Assembly (NCBI RefSeq): GCF_900188485.1
Contig: NZ_FZPH01000002.1
Location: forward strand, 434,001 to 498,000
Direction: 5' to 3'
DNA length: 64,000 nt
From: Asanoa hainanensis
GTDB taxonomy: Bacteria > Actinomycetota > Actinomycetes > Mycobacteriales > Micromonosporaceae
Shown: positions 8,374-64,000 of the stretch, one piece after another
Layout of the letters: every line of letters begins with the position of its first letter
How positions within the stretch are numbered: position 1 is the stretch's first letter
Program-made: the position numbers and the translations under genes
The notes under the pieces: model-generated
Seen by the model: the letters and a program-made list of their open reading frames with translations, nothing else
Databases searched by the model: none
Told to the model about the DNA's origin: nothing

Positions 8374-10445
8374 GCGGGTGCCACCCGCGCCGCGCAGACC
8401 TTGAACTCCGGCATCCGGGAGATCGGGTCGAGTGCGGGGTTGGTGAGCAGGTTCGCGCCGCCGTAGTGGAACGGCACGAACACGGTGTCGGCGCGGATCG
8501 TCGTGCTGACCCGGGCCGGCGCCGTCGCGCTGCCGCGCCGGGTGGCGACCGTGACCGGGGCGCCGTCGTCGACCCCGATTCGGCTCGCGAGGTCGGGGTG
8601 GAGCTCCACGTACGGGTCGCCCGGCAGCGCCGCGATCCGGCGGGTCTGCGCGCCGGACTGGTATTGAGTCAGCACCCGCCCGGTCGTCAGGTAGAGCGGG
8701 AAGTCCGCGTCGGGCTCCTCGGCCGCCGGCCGGTGCTCGACCGGCGTGAACCGGGCGCGGCCGTCAGGTGTGGCGAACCGGTCGAGGAACAGCCGCGGGG
8801 TGCCAGGGTGCGACTCGTCGGGGCAGGGCCAGAAGACGCCCCCTTCGGCGTCGATCCGCTCGTACGTGATCCCGGCGTAGTCGGCCACGCCACCGGAGCT
8901 GGCCCGGCCCAGCTCGGCGAAGACCGTTCGCGGGTCGCTCGAGGTCGGCGCGCCCAACCGGCCGGACAGCTCGGCCAGCACGGCGAGGTCGGTCCGCACG
9001 CCCGCTGGCGGCGGCGTCGCTCGTCGGCGGCGGATCACCCTGCCCTCGAGGTTGGTCATCGTGCCGTCCTCCTCGGCCCACTGCGCGGTCGGCAGCACGA
9101 CGTCGGCCAGCGCGGCCGTCTCGGAGAGCACGAAGTCCGCCACCACCAGCAGGTCGAGCGCGCCCAGCCAGCGCCGCACGCCGGCGGCCCGCGGCGCGGA
9201 GACCACCGGGTTCGACCCGAACACGAGCAGGGCGCGGACGGCATCCGAGCTGAGCAGCTCGTACGCCGACGGGCCGGCCCCGGGAATGTCGTCGGCCGCG
9301 ACGCCCCACACCCGCGCCACGTGCGCCCGGGCCGCCGGGTCGTCGATGCGCCGGTAGCCCGGGAGCTGGTCGGCCTTCTGCCCGTGCTCGCGTCCGCCCT
9401 GCCCGTTGCCCTGCCCGGTCAGGCAGCCGTAGCCGGAGCCGCGCCGCCCGGGCAGGCCCAGGGCGAGCGCGAGGTTGACGAACGCGGTGACCGTGTCCGT
9501 GCCCTTGGCGTGCTGTTCCGCGCCGCGGGCGGTGAGCACCATCGCCTTCTGGGCGTTCGCGAGGCGTTCGACGGTCGCGTACAGGTCGGCGACCGGCACA
9601 CCGGTCAACCGCTCGACCCGGGCCGGCCACCACTGGGCCACCGCGGCGCGGACCGCGTCGAAGCCGGTGGTGCGCGCGTCCACGTACGCCCGGTCGAGGT
9701 GCCCCTCGGTGATCGCGATGTGCAGGAGCCCGTTGCCGAGCGCGAGGTCGGTGCCGGGAGTCGGTTGCAGGTGCAGCGCGGCCAGCCGGGCGGTGGCCGT
9801 GCGCCGCGGGTCGACGACGACCAGCCCGTCGCCGCCCAGGTGGCGCACGAACGGCGGCATCGTCTCGGCGGGGTTCGCGCCGACCAGCAGCACCGCGTCG
9901 GCGGCGGCGATGTCCTCGACCGGGAACGGCAGCCCGCGGTCGACGCCGAAGGCCCGGTTGCCGGCCGCGGCGGCCGACGACATGCAGAACCGCCCGTTGT
10001 AGTCGATCGTGCTGGTGCGCAGCGCGACCCGGGCGAACCGGCCCAGCGCGTACGCCTTCTCGTTGGTGAGCCCGCCCCCGCCGAAAACCGCTACGGCGTC
10101 GCGTCCGTGCCGCTCCTGGATCGCGGTGATGCCGGCCACGACGCGGTCGAGCGCCTCCGGCCAGGTCGCCGGCCGCAGCGTTTCGCCGTCGTGTACCAGT
10201 GGCGTGGTGAGCCTTTCGGGGTGGCGCAGCAGGTCGGCCGACGTCCAGCCCTTCTGGCACAGGCCACCCTGGTTGGTCGGGAAGTCGCGCGCCTCGACGT
10301 CGACCCCGTCCGGGCCGGCCCGCAACCTCATCGCGCACTGGAGCGCGCAGTAGGGGCAGTGGGTGTCGGACATGCCTATCACGGTCGCGAGCTGCCGTTT
10401 CGGGGTCGGCTCCCGGCTGTTACCGGGTTGAAAATCGCGCATCAC
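8370..10445 (-). CDS. nasA: Assimilatory nitrate reductase, molybdopterin catalytic subunit
   Basis: Cytoplasmic Mo-bisMGD enzyme reducing nitrate to nitrite. An N-terminal [4Fe-4S] site is built from CPYCALQC and the later GGLCQKGWTSADLLRHPERL. The likely Mo-ligand Cys lies in NGRFCMSSAAAAGNRAFG. Cofactor-binding segments include LLVGANPAETMPPF, GYGCLTGQGNGQGGREHG and LLVFGSNPVVSAPRAAG. The C-terminal molydopterin-dinucleotide-binding domain begins around PLYLTTGRVLTQYQSGAQT. At 691 residues the length is normal. GTG and ATG are adjacent at the listed start; an ATG 24 codons later (MSDTHCPYCALQC) is an alternative. The stop overlaps the next gene by ATGA. Confidence 0.95.
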   Translation of the reverse strand: MMRDFQPGNSREPTPKRQLATVIGMSDTHCPYCALQCAMRLRAGPDGVDVEARDFPTNQGGLCQKGWTSADLLRHPERLTTPLVHDGETLRPATWPEALDRVVAGITAIQERHGRDAVAVFGGGGLTNEKAYALGRFARVALRTSTIDYNGRFCMSSAAAAGNRAFGVDRGLPFPVEDIAAADAVLLVGANPAETMPPFVRHLGGDGLVVVDPRRTATARLAALHLQPTPGTDLALGNGLLHIAITEGHLDRAYVDARTTGFDAVRAAVAQWWPARVERLTGVPVADLYATVERLANAQKAMVLTARGAEQHAKGTDTVTAFVNLALALGLPGRRGSGYGCLTGQGNGQGGREHGQKADQLPGYRRIDDPAARAHVARVWGVAADDIPGAGPSAYELLSSDAVRALLVFGSNPVVSAPRAAGVRRWLGALDLLVVADFVLSETAALADVVLPTAQWAEEDGTMTNLEGRVIRRRRATPPPAGVRTDLAVLAELSGRLGAPTSSDPRTVFAELGRASSGGVADYAGITYERIDAEGGVFWPCPDESHPGTPRLFLDRFATPDGRARFTPVEHRPAAEEPDADFPLYLTTGRVLTQYQSGAQTRRIAALPGDPYVELHPDLASRIGVDDGAPVTVATRRGSATAPARVSTTIRADTVFVPFHYGGANLLTNPALDPISRMPEFKVCAARVAPA

Positions 10446-10469
10446 ATCGACCTTCGTGCGGCGGTGAGA

Positions 10470-11747
10470 TCAGACGGCGGTCGGCCGGCGCAGGTAGCAC
10501 CACCAGGTGACCACCAGGCAGACGGCGTAGCCGGCCAGGAAGACGAGCAGGGCGGCGTCGATCGAGCCGGTCCGGCTGATCGACATACCGAACCCGCGCG
10601 GGATCAGGAACCCGCCGAACGCGCCGACGGCGGCCGCGATCCCGATGACCGCCGCCGCGGCCCTCTTTTCGAAGATCGCCGGGATCATCCGGTACGTCGA
10701 GCCGTTGCCGACCCCGCTGGCCACGAAGAGAAGCAGGAACGCGGCGAGAAACGGGGCGAAGTCGTTCGTCTTCAGGCCGACCAGCACCGCGACCACACCG
10801 GCGGCCATCACGGCGAAGGCGGCGACGGTGACCCGGGCGCCGCCGAGCCGGTCCGCGAGCCAGCCACCGACGGGCCGCGCGGCGGAGCCGACCAGCGGGC
10901 CGAGCGCGGCGAAGTGCACGCCGGCCACGGCCGGGAACTCGGCCTTGATCAGCAGCGGCAGCGCCGCGGAGTAGCCGATGAAGCTCCCGAACGTGCCGAT
11001 GTAGAGGAAGGACATGACCCAGGTGTGTTTCTGCCGGAGCGCTGCGGCCTGTTGTCTGAGGGGAGTCCGGGACACCGCCAGGTTGTCCATCCGGAGCCAG
11101 GCGAACGCGGTGGCGAGCAACACCGGGACCAGCCAGAGCAGTGGGGCGTACGCGATGCCGGCCACGACCACCAGCGGCACCGCGAACTGCACGACGGCCA
11201 CGCCGAGGTTGCCGCCGGCCGCGTTGACACCGAGCGCGAGGCCCTTGTGGCGCTCCGGGTAGAAGTAGGAGATGTTCGCCATCGACGACGCGAAGTTGCC
11301 GCCGCCGAGCCCCGCGGTGGCTGCCGCGACGGCGAACGCCCAGTAGGGCGTGCCCGGGTTGGCCACGCAGGCCAGCATCAGCCCGATCGGGACGAGCAGC
11401 AGCGCGCTGGAGACGGTCGTCCAGTTCCGCCCGCCGAACCGCGCCACCGCCGCCGTGTACGGGATGCGCATCGCCGCCCCGACCAGGTTGGGCAGAGCGA
11501 CGAGCCAGAAGAGCTGGTCGACGGAGAACGCGAACCCGGCCGCCGGCAGGCTGACCGCGACCGCGCTCCAGAGCAGCCAGACCGAGAAGCCCAGATGCTC
11601 GACGACGATCGACCAGACGAGGTTGCGTTTCGCGACCCGACGGCCCGTCGACGCCCAGAAGTCGTCGTCGTCGGGACGCCAGTCGGTGATCCAGCCACGT
11701 TGCTCGACGGGCCGGACCTGGGTGAGAGCGGTCGTCATGGCGGTCAC
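10470..11747 (-). CDS. narK: NarK/NasA-type nitrate/nitrite MFS transporter
   Basis: A 425-residue major-facilitator protein with about 12 hydrophobic segments and a short soluble N-terminus (ITDWRPDDDDFWASTGRRVA). It contains both glycine-rich nitrate signatures of the NNP family: AGLGGGNFASSMANISYFYP in TM5 and GVGNGSTYRMIPAIFEKR in TM11. It should import nitrate and/or export nitrite across the cytoplasmic membrane. First gene of the nitrate operon, 24 bases ahead of nasA. GTG/ATG starts three codons apart (MTAMTT) are possible. Confidence 0.95.
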   Translation of the reverse strand: MTAMTTALTQVRPVEQRGWITDWRPDDDDFWASTGRRVAKRNLVWSIVVEHLGFSVWLLWSAVAVSLPAAGFAFSVDQLFWLVALPNLVGAAMRIPYTAAVARFGGRNWTTVSSALLLVPIGLMLACVANPGTPYWAFAVAAATAGLGGGNFASSMANISYFYPERHKGLALGVNAAGGNLGVAVVQFAVPLVVVAGIAYAPLLWLVPVLLATAFAWLRMDNLAVSRTPLRQQAAALRQKHTWVMSFLYIGTFGSFIGYSAALPLLIKAEFPAVAGVHFAALGPLVGSAARPVGGWLADRLGGARVTVAAFAVMAAGVVAVLVGLKTNDFAPFLAAFLLLFVASGVGNGSTYRMIPAIFEKRAAAAVIGIAAAVGAFGGFLIPRGFGMSISRTGSIDAALLVFLAGYAVCLVVTWWCYLRRPTAV

Positions 11748-11761
11748 TGTCTGGCCCGACC

Positions 11762-11777
11762 GTTGCGTGGCTGTGAC
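11762..11777 (-). promoter_or_regulatory. Possible GlnR half-box upstream of narK
   Basis: On the minus strand, 15-30 bases upstream of narK, GTCACAGCCACGCAAC fits the actinobacterial GlnR arrangement gTnAC-N6-GaAAC with one mismatch. GlnR is the known activator of nitrate-assimilation genes in actinomycetes, so such a site is expected here. The second half of a full box is not convincing, and the match is short enough to occur by chance. Confidence 0.25.
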
Positions 11778-11859
11778 CGCCGGTGTGCGGTGTCGGTGAA
11801 ATCGGCATCACCACGCTCGTTCTTCCGTGGATAGGTCGCGGCCCGCGCATGATTGAGAA

Positions 11860-12159
11860 ATGACGGCCTACTGGATCAATACGTTCATCGCCATCCACGA
11901 CGAAGCCAAGCTGGCGCGTTACATCGACCTGGCCGGCCCGGCGATGCGGGCGGCGGGCGGGGTCTTCCTGGCCCGCGGCAACCCGGTGCACGTGCTGGAG
12001 GGGCGGTCCGCCCTGCGCACCACGGTCATCCGGTTCGACAGCGCCGACGAGGCCGTCGCGGCGTATCACAGCCCGGCATATCAGGCGGCGCTCGCGGAAC
12101 TCGGAGACGGCGCCGAGCGCGACATCCGCATCGTAAACGCCGCGGACGAATCGGCATGA
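11860..12159 (+). CDS. DUF1330-like small protein
   Basis: A 99-residue protein of the ferredoxin-like dimeric alpha-beta barrel type. Sequence blocks such as TAYWINTFIAIHDEAKLARY, GGVFLARGNPVHVLEG and EAVAAYHSPAYQAALAEL match the DUF1330 pattern. Function is unknown for most members. It is divergent from narK, sharing a 112-bp intergenic region, and its stop overlaps the methyltransferase start as ATGA, so the two are co-translated. No catalytic assignment is possible. Confidence 0.82.
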   Translation: MTAYWINTFIAIHDEAKLARYIDLAGPAMRAAGGVFLARGNPVHVLEGRSALRTTVIRFDSADEAVAAYHSPAYQAALAELGDGAERDIRIVNAADESA

Positions 12160-12782
12160 GCGGCGGCTCGGCGACGGCCAAGCAGCGGCGGGTGTGGGAC
12201 AGGAACGCGTCCACGTACGACAGGCAGGTCGCGTTCCTGGAGAAGATCTGGTTCGCCGGCGGACGGGAGTGGCTGGGCGAACGCGCGCGCGGCCGGATCC
12301 TCGAGGTAGCGATCGGCACGGGCCTGAACCTGTCCCACTACGGGCCTGACACGACCGTCACGGGCATCGAGCTGAGCCCGGAGATGCTCGCGATCGCCCG
12401 CCGCCGCGCCGCCGACCTGGGTGTCCCCGCGGACCTGCGCGAGGGCGACGCGGAACACCTGCCCTTCGCGGACGCGTCGTTCGACACGGTCGTGTGCGCG
12501 TTCGCGCTGTGCTCGATCCCGGACCCGCGCGCGGCCATCGGAGAGATGCGCCGGGTGCTGGTTTCGGGCGGGTCCCTGCTCCTGGTCGACCACATCGCCA
12601 GCACCTGGCCCCCCATTCACGCGGGGCAGTGGCTGCTGGAGCGGATCACGGTCCCACTGGCGGGCGAACACTTCACCCGGCGGCAGTTGGCCCTGGTCGA
12701 GGCCGCAGGATTCGAGATCGTGGAGGTCGACCGCCTGAAGGCAGGCTCGGTCGAGCGCATCCACGCCCGCGCGCTCAGCTGA
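12156..12782 (+). CDS. Class I SAM-dependent methyltransferase
   Basis: A 208-residue UbiE/PhEM-like methyltransferase. Motif I is ILEVAIGTGLNLSHY. TGIELSPEMLAIARRRA supplies the acidic residue for SAM ribose, FDTVVCAFALCSIPDP is motif II and MRRVLVSGGSLLLVDHI motif III. The N-terminal RRVWDRNASTYDRQVAFLEK is typical of the phosphatidylethanolamine/ubiquinone-type subfamily. The ATG start overlaps the preceding stop (ATGA). The gene converges on the deaminase gene with an 8-base overlap. Substrate unknown. Confidence 0.9.
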   Translation: MSGGSATAKQRRVWDRNASTYDRQVAFLEKIWFAGGREWLGERARGRILEVAIGTGLNLSHYGPDTTVTGIELSPEMLAIARRRAADLGVPADLREGDAEHLPFADASFDTVVCAFALCSIPDPRAAIGEMRRVLVSGGSLLLVDHIASTWPPIHAGQWLLERITVPLAGEHFTRRQLALVEAAGFEIVEVDRLKAGSVERIHARALS

Positions 12783-53120: not shown

Positions 53121-53863
53121 CCGCCACGCTCGCGTTCGGTGGCCGCGCGCTCAAGAAGTTCCGCCGGACGCCCATCCAGCTCCTCGACGTCGCTGTGCAC
53201 CCGGTCGTGTTCACGCTGATCTTCAGCTTCCTGTTCGGCGGGGCGGTCGGCGGCTCGATCGACGCGTACATCGGCTATCTGGTGCCCGGCATCCTGGTGA
53301 TGACCCTGCTCGTCACCACCGGCACCACCGGCGCCGCGCTCAGCGTCGACATCGCCACCGGCGTGTACGACCGGTTCCGCACGCTGTCGATCCGCCCCGG
53401 TGCCGTGCTGACGGGCGCCCTGATCGGCGACCTGGTCCGCTATGCGCTGGCCTCGGTCGTGGTGATCGTGCTGGGGCTCGCGCTCGGCTTCCGGCCGGCC
53501 GGCGGTGTCGCCGGGGTGCTGGGCGCGGTGCTGCTCGTGCTGCTGTTCGCGGTCAGCCTCTCCTGGCTCTGGACGCTGCTGGCCCTCACCATCAAGACCC
53601 CCGGGGCGGTGCTCGCCCTGACCCAGGCGGTGCTCTACCCACTGTCGTTCTTCAGCAACATCTTCACCACGCCCGCGACGTTGCCCGGTTGGCTCCAGGC
53701 GTTCGTCGACGTCAACCCGGTCAGCCACCTGGTCAGCGCGGTCCGGGCGCTGATGGCCGGCACGGCGCCCGGAGCGTCCCTGGGCTGGCTGCTGCTCGGC
53801 TGCGCGTTGCTGACGGCGGTCTTCGCGCCGTTGGCGGTGCGTCGGTTCAACGCGGCCGGCTGA
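53117..53863 (+). CDS. DrrB-like ABC-2 permease
   Basis: A 248-residue ABC-2 permease with six membrane segments ([74 protein letters not shown]). The last of these is the conserved P-L-x-F-x-S-x-x-F/P family block. It forms the membrane half of the exporter with the preceding ATPase. Confidence 0.94.
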
Positions 53864-53877
53864 GGCATGATGCGGAG

Positions 53878-54834
53878 ATGGATCAACGGCTGCTCTGGGA
53901 GCAACACTGCTGCCTCCCGCTGGTGCCCGAGGCCGACCTCGACGAGCTGACCCGCTACGAGCGGCCCGGCGGCGCGTACGTGTCGGTGAACGTCGGTTTC
54001 TCGCCGCACTCCACGGAGCTCGTCTTCGAGCTCCTGCACACCTGGCGGCGCGGGGTGACCGAGCACGACCAGCTCACGCTCGTCCACGGAGTGGCCGACA
54101 TCGACGACGCGACCCGCGCCGGGCAGATCGGCGTGGCCTTCGACCTGGAGGACTCGGGGCCGCTCGGTGGGCGGCTGGAGCGGGTGAAGGAGTTCTACGA
54201 CCTCGGCGTACGCACGCTGTTGCCGACCTACAACCTGCGTAACGCGGCCGGCTCGGGCTGCATGGACGAGGTCGACGAGGGGCTCACCGCGTACGGGCGG
54301 GACCTGGTCCGGGAGATGAACGCGGTCGGGATGGTGGTCGACGGCTCGCACTGCAGCACCCGCACGGGGCTCGACCTGGCGTCGGTGACCCAGGCCCCGA
54401 TGGTCTACAGCCACTCGTGCATGCGGGCGCTGTGGGAGCACGAGCGCAACATCACCGACGACCAGGCCCGGGCGTGCGCGGAGACCGGCGGGGTGGTCGG
54501 CATCGCCGGCGTCGGCGTCTTCCTGGGTCCGAACGACGCCAGCGTGGAGGCGATGGTGCGGCACATCGACTACGCGGTGGACCTGATCGGCCCCGACCAC
54601 GTCGGCGTCGCCTCGGACTACTCCTTCGACCTCGAGGACCTCAACCGGGAGATGGCCCTGAACCCGGAGCTGTTCCCGGAGCCGTACCGGCGCTACGGCC
54701 CGATCAAGATCATGCCGCCGGAGGACCTGCTCCGGGTGGAACAGGCCCTGCTGGACCGCGGCTACCCGGCGGACGCCGTCACGGGCATCCTGGGCGGCAA
54801 CTTCCGCCGGGTGGCGGAGCAGGTCTGGCGTTAG
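53878..54834 (+). CDS. Peptidase M19 (membrane dipeptidase) homologue lacking the HxD motif
   Basis: A 318-residue renal-dipeptidase-family protein. Late metal and substrate motifs are kept: GVAFDLEDSGPLGG (bridging Glu), MVVDGSHCSTRTGLDLASV, MVYSHSCMRALWEHERNI, and HVGVASDYSFDLEDLNRE. The usual N-terminal zinc motif H-x-D (HNDLP) is replaced by WEQHCCLPL, so the Asp is a Cys. Dipeptidase activity is uncertain. Stop overlaps the convergent ATPase stop. Confidence 0.87.
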   Translation: MDQRLLWEQHCCLPLVPEADLDELTRYERPGGAYVSVNVGFSPHSTELVFELLHTWRRGVTEHDQLTLVHGVADIDDATRAGQIGVAFDLEDSGPLGGRLERVKEFYDLGVRTLLPTYNLRNAAGSGCMDEVDEGLTAYGRDLVREMNAVGMVVDGSHCSTRTGLDLASVTQAPMVYSHSCMRALWEHERNITDDQARACAETGGVVGIAGVGVFLGPNDASVEAMVRHIDYAVDLIGPDHVGVASDYSFDLEDLNREMALNPELFPEPYRRYGPIKIMPPEDLLRVEQALLDRGYPADAVTGILGGNFRRVAEQVWR

Positions 54835-57800
54835 GGTTTGTCGCCTAGCCGGTTGAGCGCGGCTTCGACTTCGCCGATGCGGTCGGCGACCAGGCCGACG
54901 GCGCCGACCGCGCGCGACATCGGGTCGTCGTCGGCGCCCCCGAGGGCGCGCTGCCGCAGGTACGCCGCCTTGACCTCCGACCACCGGGTCGCCTGGTCGG
55001 AGGTCAGCCGTCCGCGCAGCGAGGCCAGCTTGAGCAGGTTGGCCTCGGCCGCGGCGGCCAGGGTCTGCGCCTCGCCGACGTAGTGGTCGTCGAGGACCGC
55101 CTCCAGCTCGTCGTCGTTCATCACCGGCAGGATGCGCTCGGCGAGCTTGTTCATGTTGCGGTACGAGCCCTGGAGCAGGAACGGCGGCTCGGTGCGCGCC
55201 GCGTCGTCCTGGCCGGCCGAGGCGATGTACGCCCGGTTGACCGACAGCACCACGTCGCGCACGCGGAGCAGCTTGGCCAGCACCGAGCGGATCTGGGTGA
55301 GCTCGACCGCCGGGTACGGATGTGCGAGCTGGTCGGGCAGCACGGAGGTGTCGCCCCGGGCCATCCGCACCAGCAGCTCGACGTCGCCTCTGTCCCTCGT
55401 GGACAGCGGGGCCAGCACCGGGTTCGCGGTCAGCGCGTTCTCGACGTAGCTGAGCGCGAACAGCTCGTCCCGGCCCGACAGCACGTCGCCCAGGTTCCAG
55501 ACGTCGGCGCGGTTGGCCAGCATGTCGGGCACCCGGAAGCGCCGGCCGGACTCGGTGTACGGGTTGCCGGCCATGCACACCGCGAACCGCTTGCCGCGCA
55601 GGTCGTAGGTGCGGGTGCGGCCGTCCCAAACGCCTTCCATCCGGCGCTGCCCGTCGCACAGCGAGATGAACTTCTGGAGCAGCTCCGGGGAGGTGTGCTG
55701 GATGTCGTCGAGGTAGAGCAGCACGTTGCTGCCCATCTCCAGCGCGAACGAGATCTTCTCGACCTCCTGCCGCGCGGTCGCGTCCGGTGCCGACGCCGGG
55801 TCGACCGACGTCACCGCCGTGCCCAGGGCCGGGCCGTTGACCTTGACGAACACCAGGCCGAGCCGGCTCGCCACATATTCCATGAGCGTGGTCTTGCCGT
55901 AGCCGGGCGGGGAGATCAGCAGCAGCAGGCCCGACTGGTCGACGCGCTTGGCGTCGCCGGCCGCGCCCACCTGGCGGGCCAGGTTGTCGGCGATCAGCGG
56001 CAGGTAGACCTCGTCGAGCAGGCGGTTGCGCACGAAGCCGGACATCACCCGCGGCTTGTGCTCGTCGAGCCGCAGCCGGCGGCCGGCGTCCTCGGCGACC
56101 TGGGCCCGGAGCCGCTGGTACGCCCGGTAGGCCGGAACCCGGTTGGTCCGGAACTCCTCGGTGCGGGCCAGCGCCTCGTCCAGCCGCAACGTCAGCCGCC
56201 GCTCGGTGATCCGGGGGTGGGTGCCGAGCAGGCCCTCGACGGTCGCCGTCAGCTCGGCCGACGAGTCGTAGCGCGGGAGGTCGCACAGCTCGACCGCCAC
56301 CGCCTCGGCCAGAAAGTCGGTCTGTCCGGCGTATGCGGCCAACCACGCCTCGACGAGCTGGTGCCGGGCGGCCAGGTCCGGGCCGAGCGCGCGCAGGTCT
56401 TCGTCGAGCTCGCGGGCGCGCGGGCGACCCAGCGCCTTGCGGAAGCCGGCCAGCAGGGACCGGGCAGCCGCGCTGGTGCCGAAGCCGTTGCCCGCCGCCA
56501 GCTCCTCGAACAGATACTCACCGGCCAGCGGGTGGTCCGGCAGCCCGGGCGCGGCGGTGAAGGCGGTGATCGCGGCCGTCAGCTCGGCCTGGAGGTCGTC
56601 AATCGCCGGCGAGCCGCCGAAGACCGCGCGGGCGCGGGCGAGCGAGGCGGCGCGGCGGGTCCACAGTGGCCTATTTGCCTCGGAAGCGCCGTAGGCCCAG
56701 AAGAGCTGGGCCGCCGCCCGGGCCGCCGGCGGATAGCGCAGCAGGCCCGCGCCGGTGTGCAGGCGCAGCAGCGCGTCCAGGATCGCGGTCGCGTCGGCGT
56801 CGTGGATCCCGCGCTCGTAGCCCTCGTCGATGCGCTCCTCGGCCGCCCGCCGCACCAGGTCGGCCAGCGTGCCACCGGCGGCGGCCGCGTGCAGCGCGTC
56901 GAGGTCGGCGGTGGCCAGGATCGACGTGGCGAGAAACTCGGCGCGGCTGACCTCCGGGGATTCCGAGACCAGAGGCTGGTCCCAGAACTCCTTGGTGGTG
57001 AGGAATCGCGGGTCGTCGACGGGCGCGCGGAAGTCGGTGCCGGTGACCGCCACCGCCATGGCGCCGTCGTGCGGCACTAGGGCCAGCTCGATCGCCTGGG
57101 TGTTGACGGCGAACCGGTGCCGGCCGAGCTGGATCGTCTCGCCGCCGTCGCGGAACAGGTCGATGCGGTCGCGCAGGGCCCGGCCGGCCTCCTGTCGCGT
57201 GGCCTTGACCCGGCCGTCCAGCTCTTCACCGCGTACGGCGTCGCCCAGCGCGCGCAGCTCGTCGGCGACCGACCGGAGCTTGGCCACCATCGGGTCGCCG
57301 GCGAAGTACGTGTTGACGTCGTCGAGCGTGTCCATCGTGGACGCCCGGCGGCGGACGCTGGTGAGGATCCGGTCCGCCGACTCGACCAGCCGGTCGGCCC
57401 GCCGCGAGCGGTCGTCGACCAGCGCCTGCTTGCGGGCCGAGAACGCCTCGTAGACGTCGGTGCGCTTGGTCGACAGCTCGGTGAGGAAGTCGTCGAACTC
57501 GCCGTAACGCGACTCCAGGACCTCCACCTGGAGCAACAGGCGACCGAGCTGGTCGTCGCACGCCTCGGGGGTGTCGCTGGCGGCCAGCGCGCCGGTCACC
57601 GCCTGGTTGAGCAGGGCGAACTCGGCCGCGAAGCCGGCCCGGCCCTCGACGGCGGCCAGCTCGCGGCGGCGCGCGTCGAGGGTGGCCCGGGCCCGGTTGA
57701 CCGCGCCGAGCACCTCGCCGATCCGTTCCAGGATCGCGGTGCGCACGGTCGCGTCGGCGATGTCGAGCGTGCCGACCACGTCGGTCACCAGGCGCAGCGC

Positions 57801-59702
57801 GTCGGCTTGCTCGGTGAGCCGCTCGCCGACGGGCCCGGCGGCGGCGACGGTGGGCACCTGCGCGCCCTCGGTGGTGAGCCCCTCGACCTCGGCCTGGTAG
57901 TTGGCGAAGGCGTCGGGGCGTTCCAGGAACCCGACCGCGCGCCGGGCCGTGGCGTCGAGCTGGTCGGACAGCTCCGCGCCCAGCGCGTCGATCCGGGCCA
58001 GGTCGACGTAGCGGAGCTCGCGCAGCGTCTCCAGGTGTCCCTGGGCGCGGCGCAGGTCGGCGAGCTGGGTGATCCAGCCGTCGGTGCTGGCCGGCGTCTC
58101 GCCGTTGACCCGGCGCAGCAGGGAGGCCAGGTCGGCGGCGGCGCCCTCCAGCGCTTTGCCGGCGGCGGCGGTGAGGGCCTGGACCCGCTCGTACTCGTCG
58201 AGCACCTGCTCGGCGGTCGCGCGTACCTCGGCGAGCGGGGTGCGCAGGTCGCACAGCTCCGCCTCGCCCAGCCAGTGGTAGTGGTCGAAGACCCGGACGC
58301 ACGCGGCGATCAGCGCCTCGAACACCGGCACCGACGGCTGCATCTCGCCGACCATCGTGGCCACCGAGAGTGCGTCGGAGATGCCGCGGACGAGATCGGC
58401 GTTGCCGACCCGGGCCAGCGGGCCGGTGCCGGCCGGCTGGCGGGCGGCGTACGCGTCGGACCGGAACGGGGTTTGCCACACCTGCATCGGATGTACGCGG
58501 GTCGGCTCGTCGGAGGTGGCCCGGAAGACCACCAGCGTGCCGTCGTCGAACAGCGAGTAGCCGTGGCAGGCGAGCGGGGTGGCGACCTCTTTGCGGATCA
58601 CGTTGTACGGCAGGAGAAGGCTGCGTCCCTCGACGACGGCGTGGAAGACGAACAGCACGTCCTCGCCGTTGGGCGACCGGATCAGGCGCTCGAAGACCAG
58701 GTCGGAGGTGTCGGTCTCGAACGTCTTCACCACACCGGTGGTCAGGTAGTAGCCGCCCGGGAAGATGATGCCGTGGTCCTCCGGCAGCCGCTGGCAGGAC
58801 TGCCCGATGCCGTCGAGCCGGACCACGCCCTTGGTCCGGGTGTTGAAGACCAGATGGCGCCAGGCGCTTTCCTTGTACGGGCGGACGCGCAGCAGGATCA
58901 GCGGGCCGACCCGGGCCCAGTGCACGTCGGCGTCGGCCAGGCTCTGCAGCGGCTGCTCGACGGGCTCCGCGTAGATGCCCTCGCCGGACTCGGTGTTGTC
59001 CTCGACCTTGAGGGTGAGGTCGCCTCCGACCGTCTCCACGAACAGCTCGCCCGCGATCGAGATGTGCGGGTGCCGGCCCAGCACGTGGTCGTCGCGGGTG
59101 GTCTCCACCCACTCCAGGTCGTGGCTGGGCGGGAAGACGTGGTCCCGCTCGCCGCGGTTGTCGACGTATTCGACGGACCCGTCGGCGGCCAGCGCCCAGC
59201 GCAGCACGCGGATGTCCTCGGGCCGCGGGCCGGTCTGGAACACGGCGAGCAGTTTCCCGTCGACCTCGCGCAGCGTGGCCAGCCGGGTCTCTTTGTAGTA
59301 GCGGTACAGCTCGGCGAAGTCGCGTTGGAACGTCTCGTCGTCGAGCAGCCCGGGCACCTCGGCGGAGGGCACGTCGTCGAACCGGAACGCGTCGCCGTCG
59401 CGCAGGAACCGGTGCAGCGAGAACACGTCGCCGACCGCGGTCTCGGGTTTGAGGCCGAGGAACACGTTGTAGCCGAACAGCATCACGCCGGCGGCCGGGA
59501 CGATGTCGCGCGGCACGCAGTTGTGCTCGGTGCGGACCCGGTCGGTGCCGACCAGGCGGAGCTCGGTGCTGCCGAACTCGGCCAGCCGCCGGGCGTTGAG
59601 CTCCTCCGCGCGGCTGGCCAGCTCGGCGGACCTAGCCGCGAGCCGGGCGCTCAGCACCTCGTAGGTGCCGGCGTCCAGACTCGTGGTGGTTGCCTCAGCC
59701 AC
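54831..59702 (-). CDS. Large AAA+ ATPase (annotated in relatives as DNA repair ATPase)
   Basis: A 1623-residue protein. Residues 1-500 form a long beta-rich N-terminal region (VMLFGYNVFLGLKPETAVGD, IIFPGGYYLTTGVVKTF). Residues 500-860 are coiled-coil-rich. The AAA+ module has Walker A ISPPGYGKTTLMEYVAS near 1270, Walker B VLLYLDDIQHTSPELL near 1330 and sensor-1-like FAVCMAGNPYTESGRRF, a MoxR/midasin-like flavour. A C-terminal helical part follows (NMNKLAERILPVMNDDELEA). The GTG start lies eight bases inside the flotillin gene end. A DNA-repair role is a database label, not proven; coupling to a flotillin argues for a membrane-associated remodelling ATPase. Confidence 0.85.
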   Translation of the reverse strand: MAEATTTSLDAGTYEVLSARLAARSAELASRAEELNARRLAEFGSTELRLVGTDRVRTEHNCVPRDIVPAAGVMLFGYNVFLGLKPETAVGDVFSLHRFLRDGDAFRFDDVPSAEVPGLLDDETFQRDFAELYRYYKETRLATLREVDGKLLAVFQTGPRPEDIRVLRWALAADGSVEYVDNRGERDHVFPPSHDLEWVETTRDDHVLGRHPHISIAGELFVETVGGDLTLKVEDNTESGEGIYAEPVEQPLQSLADADVHWARVGPLILLRVRPYKESAWRHLVFNTRTKGVVRLDGIGQSCQRLPEDHGIIFPGGYYLTTGVVKTFETDTSDLVFERLIRSPNGEDVLFVFHAVVEGRSLLLPYNVIRKEVATPLACHGYSLFDDGTLVVFRATSDEPTRVHPMQVWQTPFRSDAYAARQPAGTGPLARVGNADLVRGISDALSVATMVGEMQPSVPVFEALIAACVRVFDHYHWLGEAELCDLRTPLAEVRATAEQVLDEYERVQALTAAAGKALEGAAADLASLLRRVNGETPASTDGWITQLADLRRAQGHLETLRELRYVDLARIDALGAELSDQLDATARRAVGFLERPDAFANYQAEVEGLTTEGAQVPTVAAAGPVGERLTEQADALRLVTDVVGTLDIADATVRTAILERIGEVLGAVNRARATLDARRRELAAVEGRAGFAAEFALLNQAVTGALAASDTPEACDDQLGRLLLQVEVLESRYGEFDDFLTELSTKRTDVYEAFSARKQALVDDRSRRADRLVESADRILTSVRRRASTMDTLDDVNTYFAGDPMVAKLRSVADELRALGDAVRGEELDGRVKATRQEAGRALRDRIDLFRDGGETIQLGRHRFAVNTQAIELALVPHDGAMAVAVTGTDFRAPVDDPRFLTTKEFWDQPLVSESPEVSRAEFLATSILATADLDALHAAAAGGTLADLVRRAAEERIDEGYERGIHDADATAILDALLRLHTGAGLLRYPPAARAAAQLFWAYGASEANRPLWTRRAASLARARAVFGGSPAIDDLQAELTAAITAFTAAPGLPDHPLAGEYLFEELAAGNGFGTSAAARSLLAGFRKALGRPRARELDEDLRALGPDLAARHQLVEAWLAAYAGQTDFLAEAVAVELCDLPRYDSSAELTATVEGLLGTHPRITERRLTLRLDEALARTEEFRTNRVPAYRAYQRLRAQVAEDAGRRLRLDEHKPRVMSGFVRNRLLDEVYLPLIADNLARQVGAAGDAKRVDQSGLLLLISPPGYGKTTLMEYVASRLGLVFVKVNGPALGTAVTSVDPASAPDATARQEVEKISFALEMGSNVLLYLDDIQHTSPELLQKFISLCDGQRRMEGVWDGRTRTYDLRGKRFAVCMAGNPYTESGRRFRVPDMLANRADVWNLGDVLSGRDELFALSYVENALTANPVLAPLSTRDRGDVELLVRMARGDTSVLPDQLAHPYPAVELTQIRSVLAKLLRVRDVVLSVNRAYIASAGQDDAARTEPPFLLQGSYRNMNKLAERILPVMNDDELEAVLDDHYVGEAQTLAAAAEANLLKLASLRGRLTSDQATRWSEVKAAYLRQRALGGADDDPMSRAVGAVGLVADRIGEVEAALNRLGDKP

Positions 59703-61710
59703 GGGCGGCCGACGAGTTGAGCGCGGCCAGCGGCGCGTCGGCGACACCGAGCTTCTCCGCGGTCGTCAGCAGCTCGCGCAGTTTGCCGGCGTCGTTGCCA
59801 CCCGCCTTGATCTGCTGGAGCAGGAAGGCCGACAGCGACAGGTTGGTGATGTCGGCGGTGTTCACCTTGCCGAGTAGCTTGCCCAGGTCGTCGGCGAAGC
59901 TGGACGAGCCGTCCAGCCACGGGCCGGCCAGCGAGGTGGCGACCGTCGAGTTGCTGACGAAGCCGTCGACGCTCTTGCCCGTCGAGATCGCGCCGATGAG
60001 CCGGTCGAAGAAGATGCTGTCGCCACCGACGATGTCGATGTCGGCCTTCTCCAGCCCCTTGCCGATGAGCTCGGCCTGCGCCTCGGCCACCTGCCGCTGC
60101 ACGTCGATGCCGGCCAGCCGGATCTCCTTCTCGGCCTCCAGCCGCAGGCGGAACTCCTCGTGCTCGCGGGTCGCGTCGTCGAGCGCGGCCATCGCGGCCG
60201 CCTTCTCGGTCAGGCCCTCGGCCTCACCCTTGAGCTTCTCGCGCATGCCCTCGGCCGCCGCGATCGCCTTCTCGCGCTCGACCACCGCTTCGGCCCGGCC
60301 GACCTTCTCGATCGCCTCGGCGTCGCGCTCGCGCACCTGGACGTCGGCCAGCCCGGTCGCGGCCGCCTCGGCCTGGGCGCCCTCGGCGAGCCGGATCTTC
60401 GCGCGGGTGTCCAGCTCGGCGGCCTGCTGCCGGGCCTCGGCCAGGACGAGCTGCTCGCGCGCCTTGTGCTTGGCCGCGGTTTCCGCCGCCTCGGCCGCCT
60501 TGATGTCCTTGACCAGGTTCTCCTGGGCCATCGCCTCGGCCTGGATGATGGTCGACTGGCGCAGCCGCTCGGCCTCTTCGACCACGCGGAGCCGCTTGAT
60601 GTGCTCCTCCTGCTCGGCGACGGTCTTCTCGACGGCGATGCGCTCGCGGATGACCTCGGCGATCGCCCGCTTCTCGGCCTCGACCTCTTTGTTCTTGGCG
60701 ATCGTCGAGAGCTCGGTCTCGCGTTCGCGGCCGATCACCTCGAGCATGCGGTCCTTCTCGATCCGCTCGGTCTCGATCGCGATGACCCGCTCCCGGTTCT
60801 TCTCCGCGACCGCGATCTCGCGCGCCTGGTTCTCCCGCTGGACGCCGAGCTGCTCGTCGGTGCGCAGGTTCGCGGCGTTGTAGCGCAGCCGTTGCTCGGC
60901 CCGGACCAGCTCGGTCTCGGCCTCCTCGCGGGCGCGGATGGTGTCGATCTCGCGCTTCTGCTTGATCTCCGCGTCGGCCTGGCGCCGCTGCAGTTCGAGG
61001 ATGGCTTCCTTCGCGTCGACGTTCTGCCGCGTGATCTCCTTCTCCTCGTTGCGCCGGAACTCGTTGGTGCGTACGTTCTCGGCGGCGGTCAGCTCGGTGA
61101 TCTTCCGGATGCCCTGCGCGTCGAGGATGTTGCGGGGGTCGAGCTGGTCGAGCGGGGTCTGCTCCAGCACGTCGATCGCGGCGTCCTCGAGCGAGTATCC
61201 ATTGAGGTCGGTGCCGATGACGGCGATGATGCGGTCGCGGAACTCGTTGCGCTTGGTGTAGAGGTCGACGAAGTCGAGCTGCTTGCCGACCGTCTTGAGC
61301 GCCTCGGAGAACTTGGCGCTGAACAGCTCCTGGAGCGTCTCCTGGTCGCTGGCGCGCGCGGTGCCGATCGCCTGGGCCACCTTCACCACGTCTTCGGCGG
61401 TCTTGTTGACGCGCACGAAGAAGGTGATTTTGATGTCGGCCCGGATGTTGTCCTGACAGATGAGGCCGTCGTTGCCGAACCGCTCGATGTCGATGGTCTT
61501 CACCGAGATGTCCATGATCTCGGACTTGTGGAACACCGGCAGCACCACGGCGCCGGTGAAGGTGACGTCGACCTTGCGGGTCTTCGAGATGATCAGCGCC
61601 TTGCCCTGCTCGACCTTCCGGAACAGCCGGCTGACCAACAGCAGCAGGCCCAGGAGGACGATTATGAGCACCACGACGAGGACGAGGAACCCGAGCGAGA
61701 TGACGTCCAT
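59695..61710 (-). CDS. Flotillin/SPFH-domain protein (YqiK-like)
   Basis: A 671-residue flotillin. One N-terminal membrane anchor (LGFLVLVVVLIIVLLGLLLL), then a Band-7/SPFH domain at about 35-220 (VDVTFTGAVVLPVFHKSEIM, FVRVNKTAEDVVKVAQAIGT, RDRIIAVIGTDLNGYSLEDA, NILDAQGIRKITELTAAENV). A long charged coiled-coil of EA-rich repeats (RRQADAEIKQKREIDTIRA, AAEGMREKLKGEAEGLTEKA) runs to about 570, followed by a globular C-terminus. Flotillins oligomerise and organise membrane microdomains. The ATG shares one base with the preceding stop (TGATG), and the end overlaps the ATPase start. Confidence 0.93.
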   Translation of the reverse strand: MDVISLGFLVLVVVLIIVLLGLLLLVSRLFRKVEQGKALIISKTRKVDVTFTGAVVLPVFHKSEIMDISVKTIDIERFGNDGLICQDNIRADIKITFFVRVNKTAEDVVKVAQAIGTARASDQETLQELFSAKFSEALKTVGKQLDFVDLYTKRNEFRDRIIAVIGTDLNGYSLEDAAIDVLEQTPLDQLDPRNILDAQGIRKITELTAAENVRTNEFRRNEEKEITRQNVDAKEAILELQRRQADAEIKQKREIDTIRAREEAETELVRAEQRLRYNAANLRTDEQLGVQRENQAREIAVAEKNRERVIAIETERIEKDRMLEVIGRERETELSTIAKNKEVEAEKRAIAEVIRERIAVEKTVAEQEEHIKRLRVVEEAERLRQSTIIQAEAMAQENLVKDIKAAEAAETAAKHKAREQLVLAEARQQAAELDTRAKIRLAEGAQAEAAATGLADVQVRERDAEAIEKVGRAEAVVEREKAIAAAEGMREKLKGEAEGLTEKAAAMAALDDATREHEEFRLRLEAEKEIRLAGIDVQRQVAEAQAELIGKGLEKADIDIVGGDSIFFDRLIGAISTGKSVDGFVSNSTVATSLAGPWLDGSSSFADDLGKLLGKVNTADITNLSLSAFLLQQIKAGGNDAGKLRELLTTAEKLGVADAPLAALNSSAARG

Positions 61711-62300
61711 CAACGGTCCTTCGATCGATTCGAGAGGTCGGCCGGCACGACCCAGAAGAACTCGCCGGCGGAGTCGTAGTCGTAGATGACCGCCCGCGTG
61801 CCGAGGGCGAAGGTGTCGGCGCCCGTCTGGCGCACCTGCACGATGGCCGACGATCCGTCGGCGGCATGCACCTCGGCCTGACCGAAGTCGACGCCGACCC
61901 GGCCGGTGCGGATCACGCATTCCCGACCGACGAAGTCGTGCCGGGACGCCTCGGGCGCGGTCGGGAAGAACCGGCGCAGCGGGCGGCGGAGCTGGTTCGC
62001 GGCCGCCCAGGCGACGGCCAGGCTGGCGATCAGCACCAGGATGTCGAGGAAGGCGTTGTCGGGCAACAGAACCGTGCCAACCAGGCTCGCGAACCAGGCA
62101 ACAGCCACCACAATGGACAACACGACGGTGGCCGGTGTGCCACCGAGCCCGAGCCGGTCGAGAATGCCGTCGAGCCCACCGTCGGTCTCGGTGTCGAGAC
62201 CGCCCGCCAGCACGACGATCCAGTAGCAGACGACGACCGCGAGCAGGACGGTGAACACCACGGATGGAAAGCCCAGCGCCGTGTCGATGAAGTCGCCCAC
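61710..62300 (-). CDS. YqiJ-like OB-fold membrane protein
   Basis: About 196 residues: three hydrophobic segments (FPSVVFTVLLAVVVCYWIVV, TVVLSIVVAVAWFASLVGTV, FLDILVLIASLAVAWAAANQ) and a C-terminal OB-fold/NfeD-like domain (FVGRECVIRTGRVGVDFGQA, IVQVRQTGADTFALGTRAVI). The pairing of a YqiJ-type OB-fold protein with a YqiK-type flotillin is known from enterobacteria. GTG start (VGDFIDTALGFP) is a choice among several. Confidence 0.82.
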   Translation of the reverse strand: MGDFIDTALGFPSVVFTVLLAVVVCYWIVVLAGGLDTETDGGLDGILDRLGLGGTPATVVLSIVVAVAWFASLVGTVLLPDNAFLDILVLIASLAVAWAAANQLRRPLRRFFPTAPEASRHDFVGRECVIRTGRVGVDFGQAEVHAADGSSAIVQVRQTGADTFALGTRAVIYDYDSAGEFFWVVPADLSNRSKDR

Positions 62301-62357
62301 CTGTCGAAACCACCCCCATGAATGTTCCTCAGGATGATGGCACGGGCACACAAGCGA

Positions 62358-62385
62358 GGGGTCATCCGAATGGACGGATGACCCC
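62358..62385 (-). terminator. Hairpin terminator upstream of the flotillin operon
   Basis: A perfect 11-bp stem (GGGGTCATCCG/CGGATGACCCC) with a six-base loop lies 15 bases after the stop of the leftward unknown gene and before the YqiJ-like gene. It separates the two transcription units. Confidence 0.65.
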
Positions 62386-62399
62386 AGGCAGGGAAGCTG

Positions 62400-63134
62400 T
62401 CAGGCGGACGGGCGCGGCGCCGGCTGCCGGACGACGGCGGCGACCGGGTCGACCTCGGGCGGCGGGCGGTCGGGTCGCGGGACGGGGTCGTTGGCGATGA
62501 TCGGCCCCAGGCCGTCGATCGCCTGGACGAACAGATGGACGCCGGTCACCCGCATCACCGCGACACCGAGCAGCATGGCCTTCGCGGCGTCGTCCAGCGT
62601 CTTGTCGTCGACCAGCGCGACGACGTCCGCGGACAGGCGCTGCTGCTCTTCCTTCGAGGCGCCTTCCAGGAGGTTGAGCGCGAAGGCGGGCAGGACGCCG
62701 TAAGCCTTGTCGAACGAGACCTTCGGCATCATCCGCTTCGCGATCATGCTGCGGCGTTTGGCCTGGGCCCGGTCGACCTGGCGGTCGCTGATCGCGAGCA
62801 GCCGGTCGAGCAGGCCGCTCGGGCTCCAGTTGACGGTCGACCCGCGCTCGGAGCCGGCGAACAGCTTGGTGCGGAACAGTGCCACGGCGCCGAGCCCGCC
62901 GACGAGCACGCGCACCAGATCCTGCGCCTGGCCCGTCTGCCCGAAGGTCCAGCCGAAGATGCGGATGATCGCGAGGGCGGAGGCGCTGGCCGCGCAGTTG
63001 ATGAGGACGTAGAGCAGGGCGGCCGGGCGGATCAGCGAACGACCGGGGTCGTCGCGGTATCGGCTGGCCAGTTCGGCCGCACCGACCGCTCCGCCGATCG
63101 CGGACGCGAGCGCGTAACAGGTGAGGGCGTCCAT
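62400..63134 (-). CDS. Membrane protein of unknown function
   Basis: A 244-residue protein: two or three N-terminal hydrophobic segments (YALASAIGGAVGAAELASRY, PAALLYVLINCAASASALAI, LVRVLVGGLGAVALFRTKLF), then a soluble basic region (QVDRAQAKRRSMIAKRMMPK) and a helical domain, ending in a Pro-rich tail. Not recognised. It follows the 144-aa gene by four bases, forming a two-gene unit. Confidence 0.7.
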   Translation of the reverse strand: MDALTCYALASAIGGAVGAAELASRYRDDPGRSLIRPAALLYVLINCAASASALAIIRIFGWTFGQTGQAQDLVRVLVGGLGAVALFRTKLFAGSERGSTVNWSPSGLLDRLLAISDRQVDRAQAKRRSMIAKRMMPKVSFDKAYGVLPAFALNLLEGASKEEQQRLSADVVALVDDKTLDDAAKAMLLGVAVMRVTGVHLFVQAIDGLGPIIANDPVPRPDRPPPEVDPVAAVVRQPAPRPSA

Positions 63135-63138
63135 GCGG

Positions 63139-63573
63139 TCAGCCGTCGCGGTTGATGCCGCGGATGAACTGGCTGAACGAGCCGGTCACGGCAACGGTGG
63201 ATTCGGCGTCCAGGTGCTGGCCGTAGGTCGCGCGGTGCAGCAGCGCGTAGGGGGCGTCCGGGCTTTCGCCGCTGATGTCGTCCAGGATCTGCCGCAACCC
63301 GTCGGCGGCGGCGTCGTCGGCCTCCAACAGTTGGCCGAACCTCCTTGTGCATTCGAAAAGCAGTCCCGATTTCAGGCCGATGGAGTTGCCCGAGCGGAGA
63401 AGCTGTTCGCGCATCTCGTCCAGCTCCTCGGTTATCGCGGCCCGCTCGCCGGCAGACGTGCGATCGAACAGATGGACAACCGCCGTTTTCGTCTTTCGCC
63501 AATTGTGCGTGGGCATCTGGGAAATGACCGCTGCCGCGGCCTGAGTCGCCAACATGACGGCATAAGCGTCCAT
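63139..63573 (-). CDS. Small helical protein of unknown function
   Basis: A 144-residue protein with an Ala-rich hydrophobic N-terminus (MDAYAVMLATQAAAAVISQM) followed by charged helices (SAGERAAITEELDEMREQLL, EADDAAADGLRQILDDISG). No family recognised. Coupled to the membrane protein gene that follows it, divergent from the protease gene at the window edge. Confidence 0.65.
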   Translation of the reverse strand: MDAYAVMLATQAAAAVISQMPTHNWRKTKTAVVHLFDRTSAGERAAITEELDEMREQLLRSGNSIGLKSGLLFECTRRFGQLLEADDAAADGLRQILDDISGESPDAPYALLHRATYGQHLDAESTVAVTGSFSQFIRGINRDG

Positions 63574-63834
63574 TTGCGCTTGCCTCTCCCGATCGGGCCG
63601 GCGGCTCTCTCGAATCTAAGCGCACGGTCACGCAAAATCCAGAACCCGCGAAGGTGGCGTTCTCCCCCGAACGGCGTAGCCCGTTCGTGCTCGGATGATT
63701 CTCGCGCATCGCGATGGGGATGTCGCACAAATCGCGCGCAACACGGCATCGGCCGACTCGTTGTCCGAGGTGCCTGGTCCCCGTACGGGGGACATGGCAC
63801 GGATCGTCGGCAACGAAGGTGATGGGGGAGGAAG

Positions 63835-64000
63835 ATGACTGACACTTGGCAAAGACCTCAGCTTGCGGCAAGCCTCAAGCCGTCCCGTTCGCCGCTCTTT
63901 GTCGCGCAACATTCGGAACGCTATGCCCGCCAGGCGCTGATCGGCGAATACGAGGACCGGTACGGCGTAACGCTGATCGTTATGATCGACGCCATTTTCG
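63835..64000 (+). CDS. Probable serine-dehydrogenase/ClpP-crotonase-type protease (start only)
   Basis: The first 55 codons of a gene leaving the right edge, preceded by a strong GGGGGAGGAAG. PLFVAQHSERYARQALIGEY and the following DRYGVTLIVMIDAIF match the start of SDH (serine dehydrogenase proteinase) family proteins, which are SppA-like. The catalytic residues lie beyond the window. Confidence 0.55.
   Translation, partial: MTDTWQRPQLAASLKPSRSPLFVAQHSERYARQALIGEYEDRYGVTLIVMIDAIF

What the first reader, a model, noticed from the sequence alone, without database searches (positions are those of the whole stretch)
54831..63573. Translationally coupled flotillin / OB-fold / giant AAA+ ATPase module beside unknown membrane genes and a protease
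The YqiJ-like protein, YqiK-type flotillin and 1623-residue AAA+ ATPase overlap by 1 and 8 bases, so they are made together and probably form one membrane-attached machine. The ATPase has a large beta N-terminus, long coiled coils and a MoxR/midasin-like AAA+ core. Two unknown proteins (one membrane, one small helical) and a probable serine protease adjoin it. This resembles the architecture of uncharacterised stress or conflict systems. The repair label on the ATPase is unsupported by the sequence itself.
Basis: partly seen in the sequence, partly recalled or inferred. Interest (0 to 1): 0.75.

Follow-up and report, generated by a model that had tools for sequence, protein, structure and literature searches.

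The report
Flotillin with giant AAA+ ATPase operon
Three neighbouring genes in this bacterium make a membrane scaffold protein, its small membrane partner and a very large ATP-driven machine; the set recurs together in distant bacteria and probably remodels the cell envelope under stress, it has been described before without a tested function, and the other genes beside it are chance neighbours.

Summary
The core is a real unit: of 200 family genomes the same 81 have flotillin and ATPase, neither was found alone, and 79 of 81 have them within 1.2 kb. The order recurs in Myxococcus, Gammaproteobacteria, Hymenobacter and Deinococcus records. The wider module is wrong: the 144-aa and 244-aa genes and the divergent ClpP-like protease form a 2.3-kb insert; three same-genus genomes show the empty site, and 120 other ATPase loci gave no match. 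The triad is already in print as an in-silico finding (Ravi et al. 2024, PMC11237479), an abbreviated CesT/Tir-PspA-YqiJ-flotillin-AAA+(-PLD) operon; I see PspA beside it in Pseudomonas and Hymenobacter plasmids. Most likely it is a membrane-tethered MoxR-type remodelling ATPase on a flotillin scaffold acting in envelope stress; complex and client are untested. No support for DNA repair beyond names and a generic RuvB-like AAA match; none for defence beyond weak AAA matches. New member of a known, uncharacterised kind.

The parts
54831..59702 (-). 1623-aa DUF3686 AAA+ ATPase (relatives labelled 'DNA repair ATPase'): beta domain about residues 49-410, long helices, DUF7902 at 597-681, AAA+ match 1260-1383
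59695..61710 (-). 671-aa flotillin (SPFH/Band 7, YqiK type); 8-base overlap with the ATPase gene
   Evidence: Band_7 1.1e-9 on the first 270 aa; no match at the full length; 29% over 452 aa to E. coli YqiK
61710..62300 (-). YqiJ-like membrane protein, three hydrophobic stretches by eye; start uncertain (GTG 62300 by conservation, or GTG 62351); 1-base overlap with the flotillin gene
   Evidence: profile to E. coli YqiJ: probability 78%, E 1.9e-5
62358..62385 (.). 11-bp perfect inverted repeat kept in three same-genus genomes; possible terminator between insert and triad (inference)
62390..64000 (.). NOT part of the module: insert of about 2.3 kb (continues past the window to about 64717) with the 244-aa, 144-aa and protease genes
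   Evidence: empty site in L043, L045, L046
62400..63134 (-). insert: 244-aa protein with N-terminal hydrophobic segments (by eye), no family
63139..63573 (-). insert: 144-aa protein, no family; a distant relative (28% identity, E 3.6e-5) precedes a 244-aa relative in L085
63835..64000 (+). insert: 5' end of a divergent 294-aa PF01972 SDH-type ClpP-like protease gene, cut by the window end
53689..54834 (+). NOT part of the module: convergent M19 dipeptidase; near the ATPase in 4 of 5 same-genus loci (the fifth is cut by a contig end) and in none of the other 115 loci

Best explanation
The triad encodes a membrane-tethered remodelling machine. The YqiJ-like protein and the flotillin build an SPFH scaffold at the inner face of the membrane. 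The giant ATPase docks on that scaffold, probably through its beta (propeller-like) domain and long helices, and its MoxR-type AAA+ ring uses ATP to remodel or disassemble a membrane-bound client during envelope stress; where the gene run also carries PspA and a CesT/Tir chaperone, the PspA (ESCRT-III-like) polymer is the most likely client. Shown here: gene order, pairing, conserved ATPase motifs, predicted domain folds, PspA/Tir/PLD neighbours in other lineages. Inferred: the physical complex, the docking surfaces, the ring, the client and the stress role.
For: Flotillin (E up to 1e-20) and DUF3686 occur in the same 81 of 200 family genomes; 79 of the 81 have them on one strand of one contig within 1.2 kb; the other two are G402 (ATPase match 294 bases from a contig end) and G320 (22 kb apart, prophage-like genes between). 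In 80 named loci the flotillin match ends within 1 kb upstream of the ATPase in 78; the two misses (L095, L158) start at a contig edge. Flotillin precedes the ATPase in 8 of 8 plasmid-collection loci examined and in L133, L148, L150 and L163. P-loop (G1267-T1272), D1332-D1333, N1380 and R1398 are invariant in 18 sequences (their roles recalled). Among the 50 Foldseek rows shown, MoxR-type CbbQ/NorQ have the best target-normalised scores, up to 0.56, against up to 0.39 for RuvB. PspA with YjfI or a Tir chaperone lies in the same gene run on pQBR103 and a Hymenobacter plasmid; PLD and TelA follow the ATPase in Vibrio.
Against: No PspA family was among the recurrent neighbours identified in the mainly actinobacterial loci; in the window's genome PspA is on another contig. 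All 81 triad genomes have PspA but so do 111 of the 119 others, so co-occurrence says little. By E-value the first Foldseek hit of the C-terminal part is RuvB, and MCM helicases are among the top rows. The beta-domain matches have low scores (TMt at most 0.33), so 'propeller' is likely, not shown. The P. aeruginosa flotillin PaFlo3 (PA14_16180, in an operon with a short NfeD) belongs to a set whose deletions gave no pronounced phenotype (PMC13086221, passages). Adjacency does not prove a complex.
Confidence: 0.5

Rival explanations
1. A dedicated assembly chaperone: like MoxR-type CbbQ or NorQ, the ATPase matures or inserts one particular membrane or metal enzyme inside a flotillin microdomain, with PspA incidental.
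For: Closest solved relatives by target-normalised fold score are CbbQ and NorQ; no PspA among the recurrent neighbours identified in the mainly actinobacterial loci.
Against: No client gene recurs: beyond the triad the commonest neighbour family is a PucR-type regulator in 37 of 129 loci. No VWA partner, usual for MoxR systems (recalled), among the families identified; not searched by profile.
Confidence: 0.25
2. An anti-phage or inter-bacterial conflict system.
For: Patchy distribution (8 of 296 phylum genomes and 81 of 200 family genomes, own included); 12 records of the plasmid collection, several of chromosome size; E 0.001-0.04 to the AAA part of IetA; the Vibrio PLD protein after the ATPase matches PLD-type defence models such as DrmC (E 1.3e-10), which may be superfamily similarity only.
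Against: PADLOC has no match for YqiJ or flotillin; none of the commonest neighbour families identified is effector-like. Defence genes in the flanks were not scanned systematically.
Confidence: 0.1
3. A DNA repair ATPase, as the databases label it.
For: Pfam and record names; weak RuvB matches around the P-loop; RuvB is the first Foldseek hit of the C-terminal part by E-value.
Against: No DNA-binding domain in the Pfam scan; the constant partners are membrane proteins; no repair gene among the commonest neighbour families identified; MoxR structures fit the AAA+ part better than RuvB by TMt.
Confidence: 0.03
4. A module that also includes the 144-aa, 244-aa and protease genes.
For: Adjacency in this one genome.
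Against: Empty site in three same-genus genomes; no match to any of the three in 120 other ATPase loci; 244-aa relatives in 2 of 199 other family genomes, neither of which has the triad.
Confidence: 0.02

Closest known systems
CesT/Tir-PspA-YqiJ-flotillin-AAA+ operon and its abbreviated YqiJ-flotillin(-AAA+) form (Ravi et al. 2024, PMC11237479, passages seen)
   Same: Band 7 plus coiled coil flotillin, YqiJ-type membrane protein and a large AAA+ ATPase with beta and coiled-coil parts, encoded together
   Different: No CesT/Tir, PspA or PLD beside it here. 'DUF3686' is in no paper of the library, so that their ATPase is DUF3686 is my inference from architecture and from the pQBR103 and Hymenobacter loci
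P. aeruginosa bacABCDEF operon (PMC10948618, PMC2587700, PMC13086221; passages seen)
   Same: bacB PspA; PA14_16160 (bacC) short NfeD and PA14_16180 (bacD) SPFH; bacA chaperone-like fold; six genes linked by RT-PCR
   Different: Whether bacE or bacF is the DUF3686 ATPase could not be checked; the word ATPase does not occur in PMC10948618
E. coli YqiJ-YqiK
   Same: Flotillin 29% identical over 452 aa; YqiJ a distant profile match
   Different: No ATPase gene in the E. coli K-12 locus
HflK-HflC with FtsH (recalled; mentioned in PMC13086221 passages)
   Same: SPFH proteins working with an AAA+ ATPase
   Different: Here the ATPase is MoxR-like and shows no protease domain in Pfam; transmembrane segments were not tested
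MoxR AAA+ ATPases CbbQ and NorQ
   Same: AAA+ fold and motifs
   Different: 1623 aa against chains of about 235-267 residues; flotillin partner instead of a VWA protein (VWA recalled)

Membership tests
YqiJ-flotillin-AAA+ operon of Ravi et al. 2024 (abbreviated form) | Band 7 domain protein | tested here: met
   Band_7 E 1.1e-9 on the first 270 aa
YqiJ-flotillin-AAA+ operon of Ravi et al. 2024 (abbreviated form) | TM, coiled coil and flotillin part of the same protein | tested here: inconclusive
   only by 29% identity to YqiK over 452 aa; no TM or coil predictor run
YqiJ-flotillin-AAA+ operon of Ravi et al. 2024 (abbreviated form) | 3TM YqiJ/YuaF-type partner | tested here: inconclusive
   profile probability 78%, E 1.9e-5 to E. 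coli YqiJ; three hydrophobic stretches by eye; no Pfam match
YqiJ-flotillin-AAA+ operon of Ravi et al. 2024 (abbreviated form) | AAA+ ATPase with N-terminal beta-propeller repeats and coiled coil | tested here: inconclusive
   AAA+ met; confident beta domain and helices; propeller hits with TMt at most 0.33
CesT/Tir-PspA full operon | CesT/Tir and PspA genes in the operon | tested here: not met
   one PspA match in the genome, on another contig; the genes beside the triad are otherwise identified or without family
MoxR-type AAA+ | P-loop, Walker B, sensor 1, Arg finger and MoxR-like fold | tested here: met
   motif names recalled; RuvB ranks first by E-value
MoxR systems | VWA partner | tested here: inconclusive
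   none among the neighbour families identified; not searched by profile
Known anti-phage systems (PADLOC) | match to defence models | tested here: not met
   only E 0.001-0.04 to the AAA part of IetA
DNA repair ATPase | DNA-repair activity | not testable with these tools
   by linkage, no repair gene among the commonest neighbour families identified

The most novel reading that the evidence does not exclude
An SPFH scaffold that permanently houses a giant, non-proteolytic MoxR-type AAA+ remodelase: a bacterial counterpart of ESCRT-III/Vps4, with the flotillin as platform and PspA polymers as client, seen here in records of five phyla (Actinomycetota, Myxococcota, Pseudomonadota, Bacteroidota, Deinococcota) and, as far as my searches show, never tested as a complex.
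Probability: 0.3. Interest if true: 0.75.

Novelty: new member of a known kind. Interest (0 to 1): 0.4.

Why it matters
Bacterial flotillins have few firm functions, and the DUF3686 ATPases carry a 'DNA repair' name for which I found little basis. The pairing seen here (81 of 200 genomes with both, none with one alone) makes one flotillin subfamily directly testable as the platform of a specific ATPase, and separates true partners from chance neighbours.

Tried and rejected
Rejected: protease, 144-aa and 244-aa genes as partners; M19 dipeptidase as a general partner (4 of 5 same-genus loci, the fifth cut by a contig end; 0 of the other 115); overlap lengths as a general feature; the defence reading as given; DNA repair.

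Led nowhere or limited: no target-site duplication or terminal repeat at the insert ends (one 8-base inverted match only); PspA co-occurrence (81 of 81 against 111 of 119) is too common to discriminate; PDB sequence searches with the flotillin, its N-terminus and the YqiJ profile gave nothing useful. The genome searches score a limited number of first-look candidates per genome (5 for the flotillin; 13 for the 244-aa protein), so an absence means none among those. Neighbour clustering uses ORFs called by codon composition, with ORFs over 1400 aa cut to 400; it finds YqiJ in 77 of 129 loci, while tblastn finds it in 39 of 41 and 62 of 80 and in 7 of 8 plasmid-collection loci. Of the clusters beyond the triad only two were scanned with Pfam, a few more were read by eye, the rest not identified. 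Left unused: 6 PDB, 5 family, 4 genome and 3 paper searches.
Full report
WHAT IS THERE. On the minus strand the window holds, in transcription order, a 144-aa ORF (63573-63139), a 244-aa ORF (63134-62400), a YqiJ-like ORF (to 61710), a flotillin (61710-59695) and a 1623-aa ATPase (59702-54831). YqiJ stop and flotillin start share one base (TGATG), flotillin stop and ATPase start share eight (GTGGCTGA). The ATPase matches Pfam DUF3686 at residues 27-476 (E 5.7e-220), DUF7902 at 597-681 and AAA models around 1260-1383. The flotillin has no Pfam match at full length but Band_7 on its first 270 residues (E 1.1e-9), and is 29% identical to E. coli YqiK over 452 residues. The YqiJ-like protein has no Pfam match; a profile of 16 relatives matches E. 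coli YqiJ with probability 78%, E 1.9e-5. A convergent M19 dipeptidase ends at 54834. The 'serine protease' starts at 63835 on the plus strand and runs off the window; in the genome it is a 294-aa PF01972 SDH-type, ClpP-like protein (E 6.9e-14).

THE TRIAD IS A REAL UNIT. DUF3686 is in 8 of 296 genomes across the phylum and 81 of 200 of the family, own genome included in both. The same 200 searched with the flotillin (E up to 1e-20, at most 5 first-look candidates scored) give the same 81 genomes. In 79 of the 81, matches lie on one strand of one contig, 57 to 1121 bases apart; in G402 they are on two contigs, the ATPase contig ending 294 bases beyond the DUF3686 match; in G320 they are 22,474 bases apart with a prophage-like gene set, including an integrase-like ORF next to the ATPase, between them (phage reading by eye). 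Of 41 DUF3686 loci read in stretches of up to 20 kb (window included), flotillin is found in 40 (the miss is G320) and YqiJ in 39. Of 80 named loci the flotillin match ends within 973 bases of the ATPase in 78 and YqiJ is found in 62; the two flotillin misses, L095 and L158, begin at a contig edge. Further afield flotillin precedes the ATPase in Myxococcus L150, in MAGs L133 (Deltaproteobacteria), L148 (proteobacterium) and L163 (bacterium), and in 8 of 8 plasmid-collection loci read: Pseudomonas pQBR103, Hymenobacter, Halomonas, Vibrio, Deinococcus (two), Streptomyces and Proteus. YqiJ was matched in all of these but Vibrio, where an ORF of the right size lies in its place. Short overlaps are not general: ATPase overlaps flotillin in 15 of 37 loci with all three genes called, YqiJ overlaps flotillin in 11 of 37 (L069 set aside as an artefact; starts chosen mechanically).

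THE OTHER GENES ARE NOT PART OF IT. In 40 other DUF3686 loci, five from the same genus, and in 80 named loci, tblastn (E up to 1e-3) found no relative of the 144-aa or 244-aa protein or of the protease (some loci are cut by contig ends). In three same-genus genomes (L043, L045, L046) an amidohydrolase gene directly adjoins the YqiJ gene; in the window's genome about 2.3 kb with exactly these three genes lies between them. L042 and L044 have other sequence there and do not inform. The insert has 68% G+C against 71-72% of its flanks, and no target duplication or terminal repeat of note. Insertion rather than loss is inferred from rarity: the 244-aa protein is in 2 of 199 other family genomes, G485 and G369, neither of which has the triad. 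In G485 (L085) it is again preceded by a distant relative of the 144-aa protein (28% identity, E 3.6e-5), with an FtsK-like ATPase gene nearby; in G369 (L086) the upstream gene differs. An 11-bp inverted repeat at 62385-62358, kept in the three genomes, lies between insert and triad and may end transcription (inference). The M19 gene is near the ATPase in 4 of 5 same-genus loci, the fifth being cut by a contig end, and in none of the other 115.

DOMAINS. AlphaFold models from 20 and 19 aligned sequences: residues 1-700, mean pLDDT 87.5, a helix, strands from 49 to 410, then long helices; residues 701-1623, mean pLDDT 82.9. Foldseek hits of the first include many proteins that I know as beta-propellers (clathrin terminal domain and linker, paraoxonase, YncE, WDR91; recalled), E to 1.1e-5 but TMt at most 0.33 with large rmsd, so a propeller is probable, not shown. 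The second hits AAA+ proteins. By E-value RuvB comes first and MCM helicases are frequent; by target-normalised score MoxR-type CbbQ and NorQ are best among the 50 rows shown (up to 0.56), RuvB up to 0.39, MCM up to 0.27. P-loop, D1332-D1333, N1380 and R1398 are invariant in 18 sequences.

NEIGHBOURS AND FUNCTION. Clustering of called ORFs in 129 loci gives the triad (117, 115 and 77 loci), then a PucR-type regulator (37 loci, mostly opposite strand; GGDEF_2 and HTH_30), an ABC ATPase (13, by eye), a double TrkA_N protein (12) and families in 10 loci or fewer. pQBR103 carries YjfI, PspA, rhomboid, DUF2491, DUF350, DUF1190 and a glutathionylspermidine synthase just before the triad; Hymenobacter carries a CesT_Tir_1 chaperone and PspA; Vibrio has a PLD protein and TelA after the ATPase, Proteus has divergent TPM and LemA genes upstream. 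The two Deinococcus loci and Streptomyces L172 show no gene named PspA. The window's genome has one PspA match, on another contig; all 81 triad genomes have PspA, as do 111 of the 119 others, so this does not discriminate. Together these point, modestly, to envelope stress and membrane remodelling.

LITERATURE. Ravi et al. [quoted passage not shown] 'DUF3686' is in 0 papers of the library; 'flotillin' with 'DNA repair ATPase' in 0; flotillin, AAA+ ATPase, PspA and operon together in that one paper. P. aeruginosa bacABCDEF (PMC10948618, passages; PMC2587700, passages) is linked by RT-PCR and contains PspA and, by PMC13086221 (passages), a short NfeD and an SPFH protein; in a bacA transposon mutant the other five proteins rose 6.1- to 13.5-fold. 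That bacE or bacF is the ATPase is my unchecked inference. PMC13086221 reports that deleting SPFH genes in that species gave no pronounced changes, which counts against a strong general role. SPFH/NfeD background: PMC2636767 (passages). Shewanella SO1376/SO1377 (PMC1468410, passages) is a DUF1449/COG2268 pair; loss of SO1377 altered iron metabolism and peroxide sensitivity.

VERDICT. A genuine, conserved three-gene unit with a plausible mechanism, already in print as an in-silico finding; the surrounding genes are chance neighbours. Added here: the pairing count, the empty-site evidence against the wider module, the prophage-split locus, and DUF3686 ATPases in gene runs with PspA.

Noticed in passing
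G320 contig C21 about 62921-84730 (L185, L186): A prophage-like gene set with an integrase-like ORF lies between the flotillin and ATPase genes, splitting an otherwise near-constant pair.
   Followed up: partly
window 62390-64000 and beyond (L012 about 10391-12718): 2.3-kb insert: ClpP-like SDH protease divergent from a 144-aa and a 244-aa membrane-type protein, no PADLOC match for any of the three; possibly a small system of its own.
   Followed up: partly
L085 5034-10563: A 172-aa/244-aa pair related to the insert's two genes lies near an FtsK/SpoIIIE-like ATPase (PADLOC mad8 E 1.9e-18); both 144-aa-type proteins carry a TGSFS-x-F motif near the C-terminus (by eye).
   Followed up: partly
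L181 7184-7627, L182 6968-7423: Distant relatives of the 144-aa protein in two same-class genomes have different tails (GPVIQ/GQVIQ type, by eye).
   Followed up: no
37 of 129 DUF3686 loci, e.g. L162 5953-7071: A PucR-type regulator recurs about 4.3 kb upstream of the ATPase, mostly on the opposite strand.
   Followed up: partly
L170 12735-14513: Vibrio record: PLD-like protein and TelA follow the ATPase directly.
   Followed up: partly
12 of 129 loci, e.g. L124 15044-17050: Protein with two TrkA_N stretches, probably ion-channel related, near the triad.
   Followed up: no
G128 and G182: Two DUF3686 copies in one genome.
   Followed up: no
G361 C1 4013926-4014738: Second, partial flotillin match with a stop inside, away from the ATPase.
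   Followed up: no
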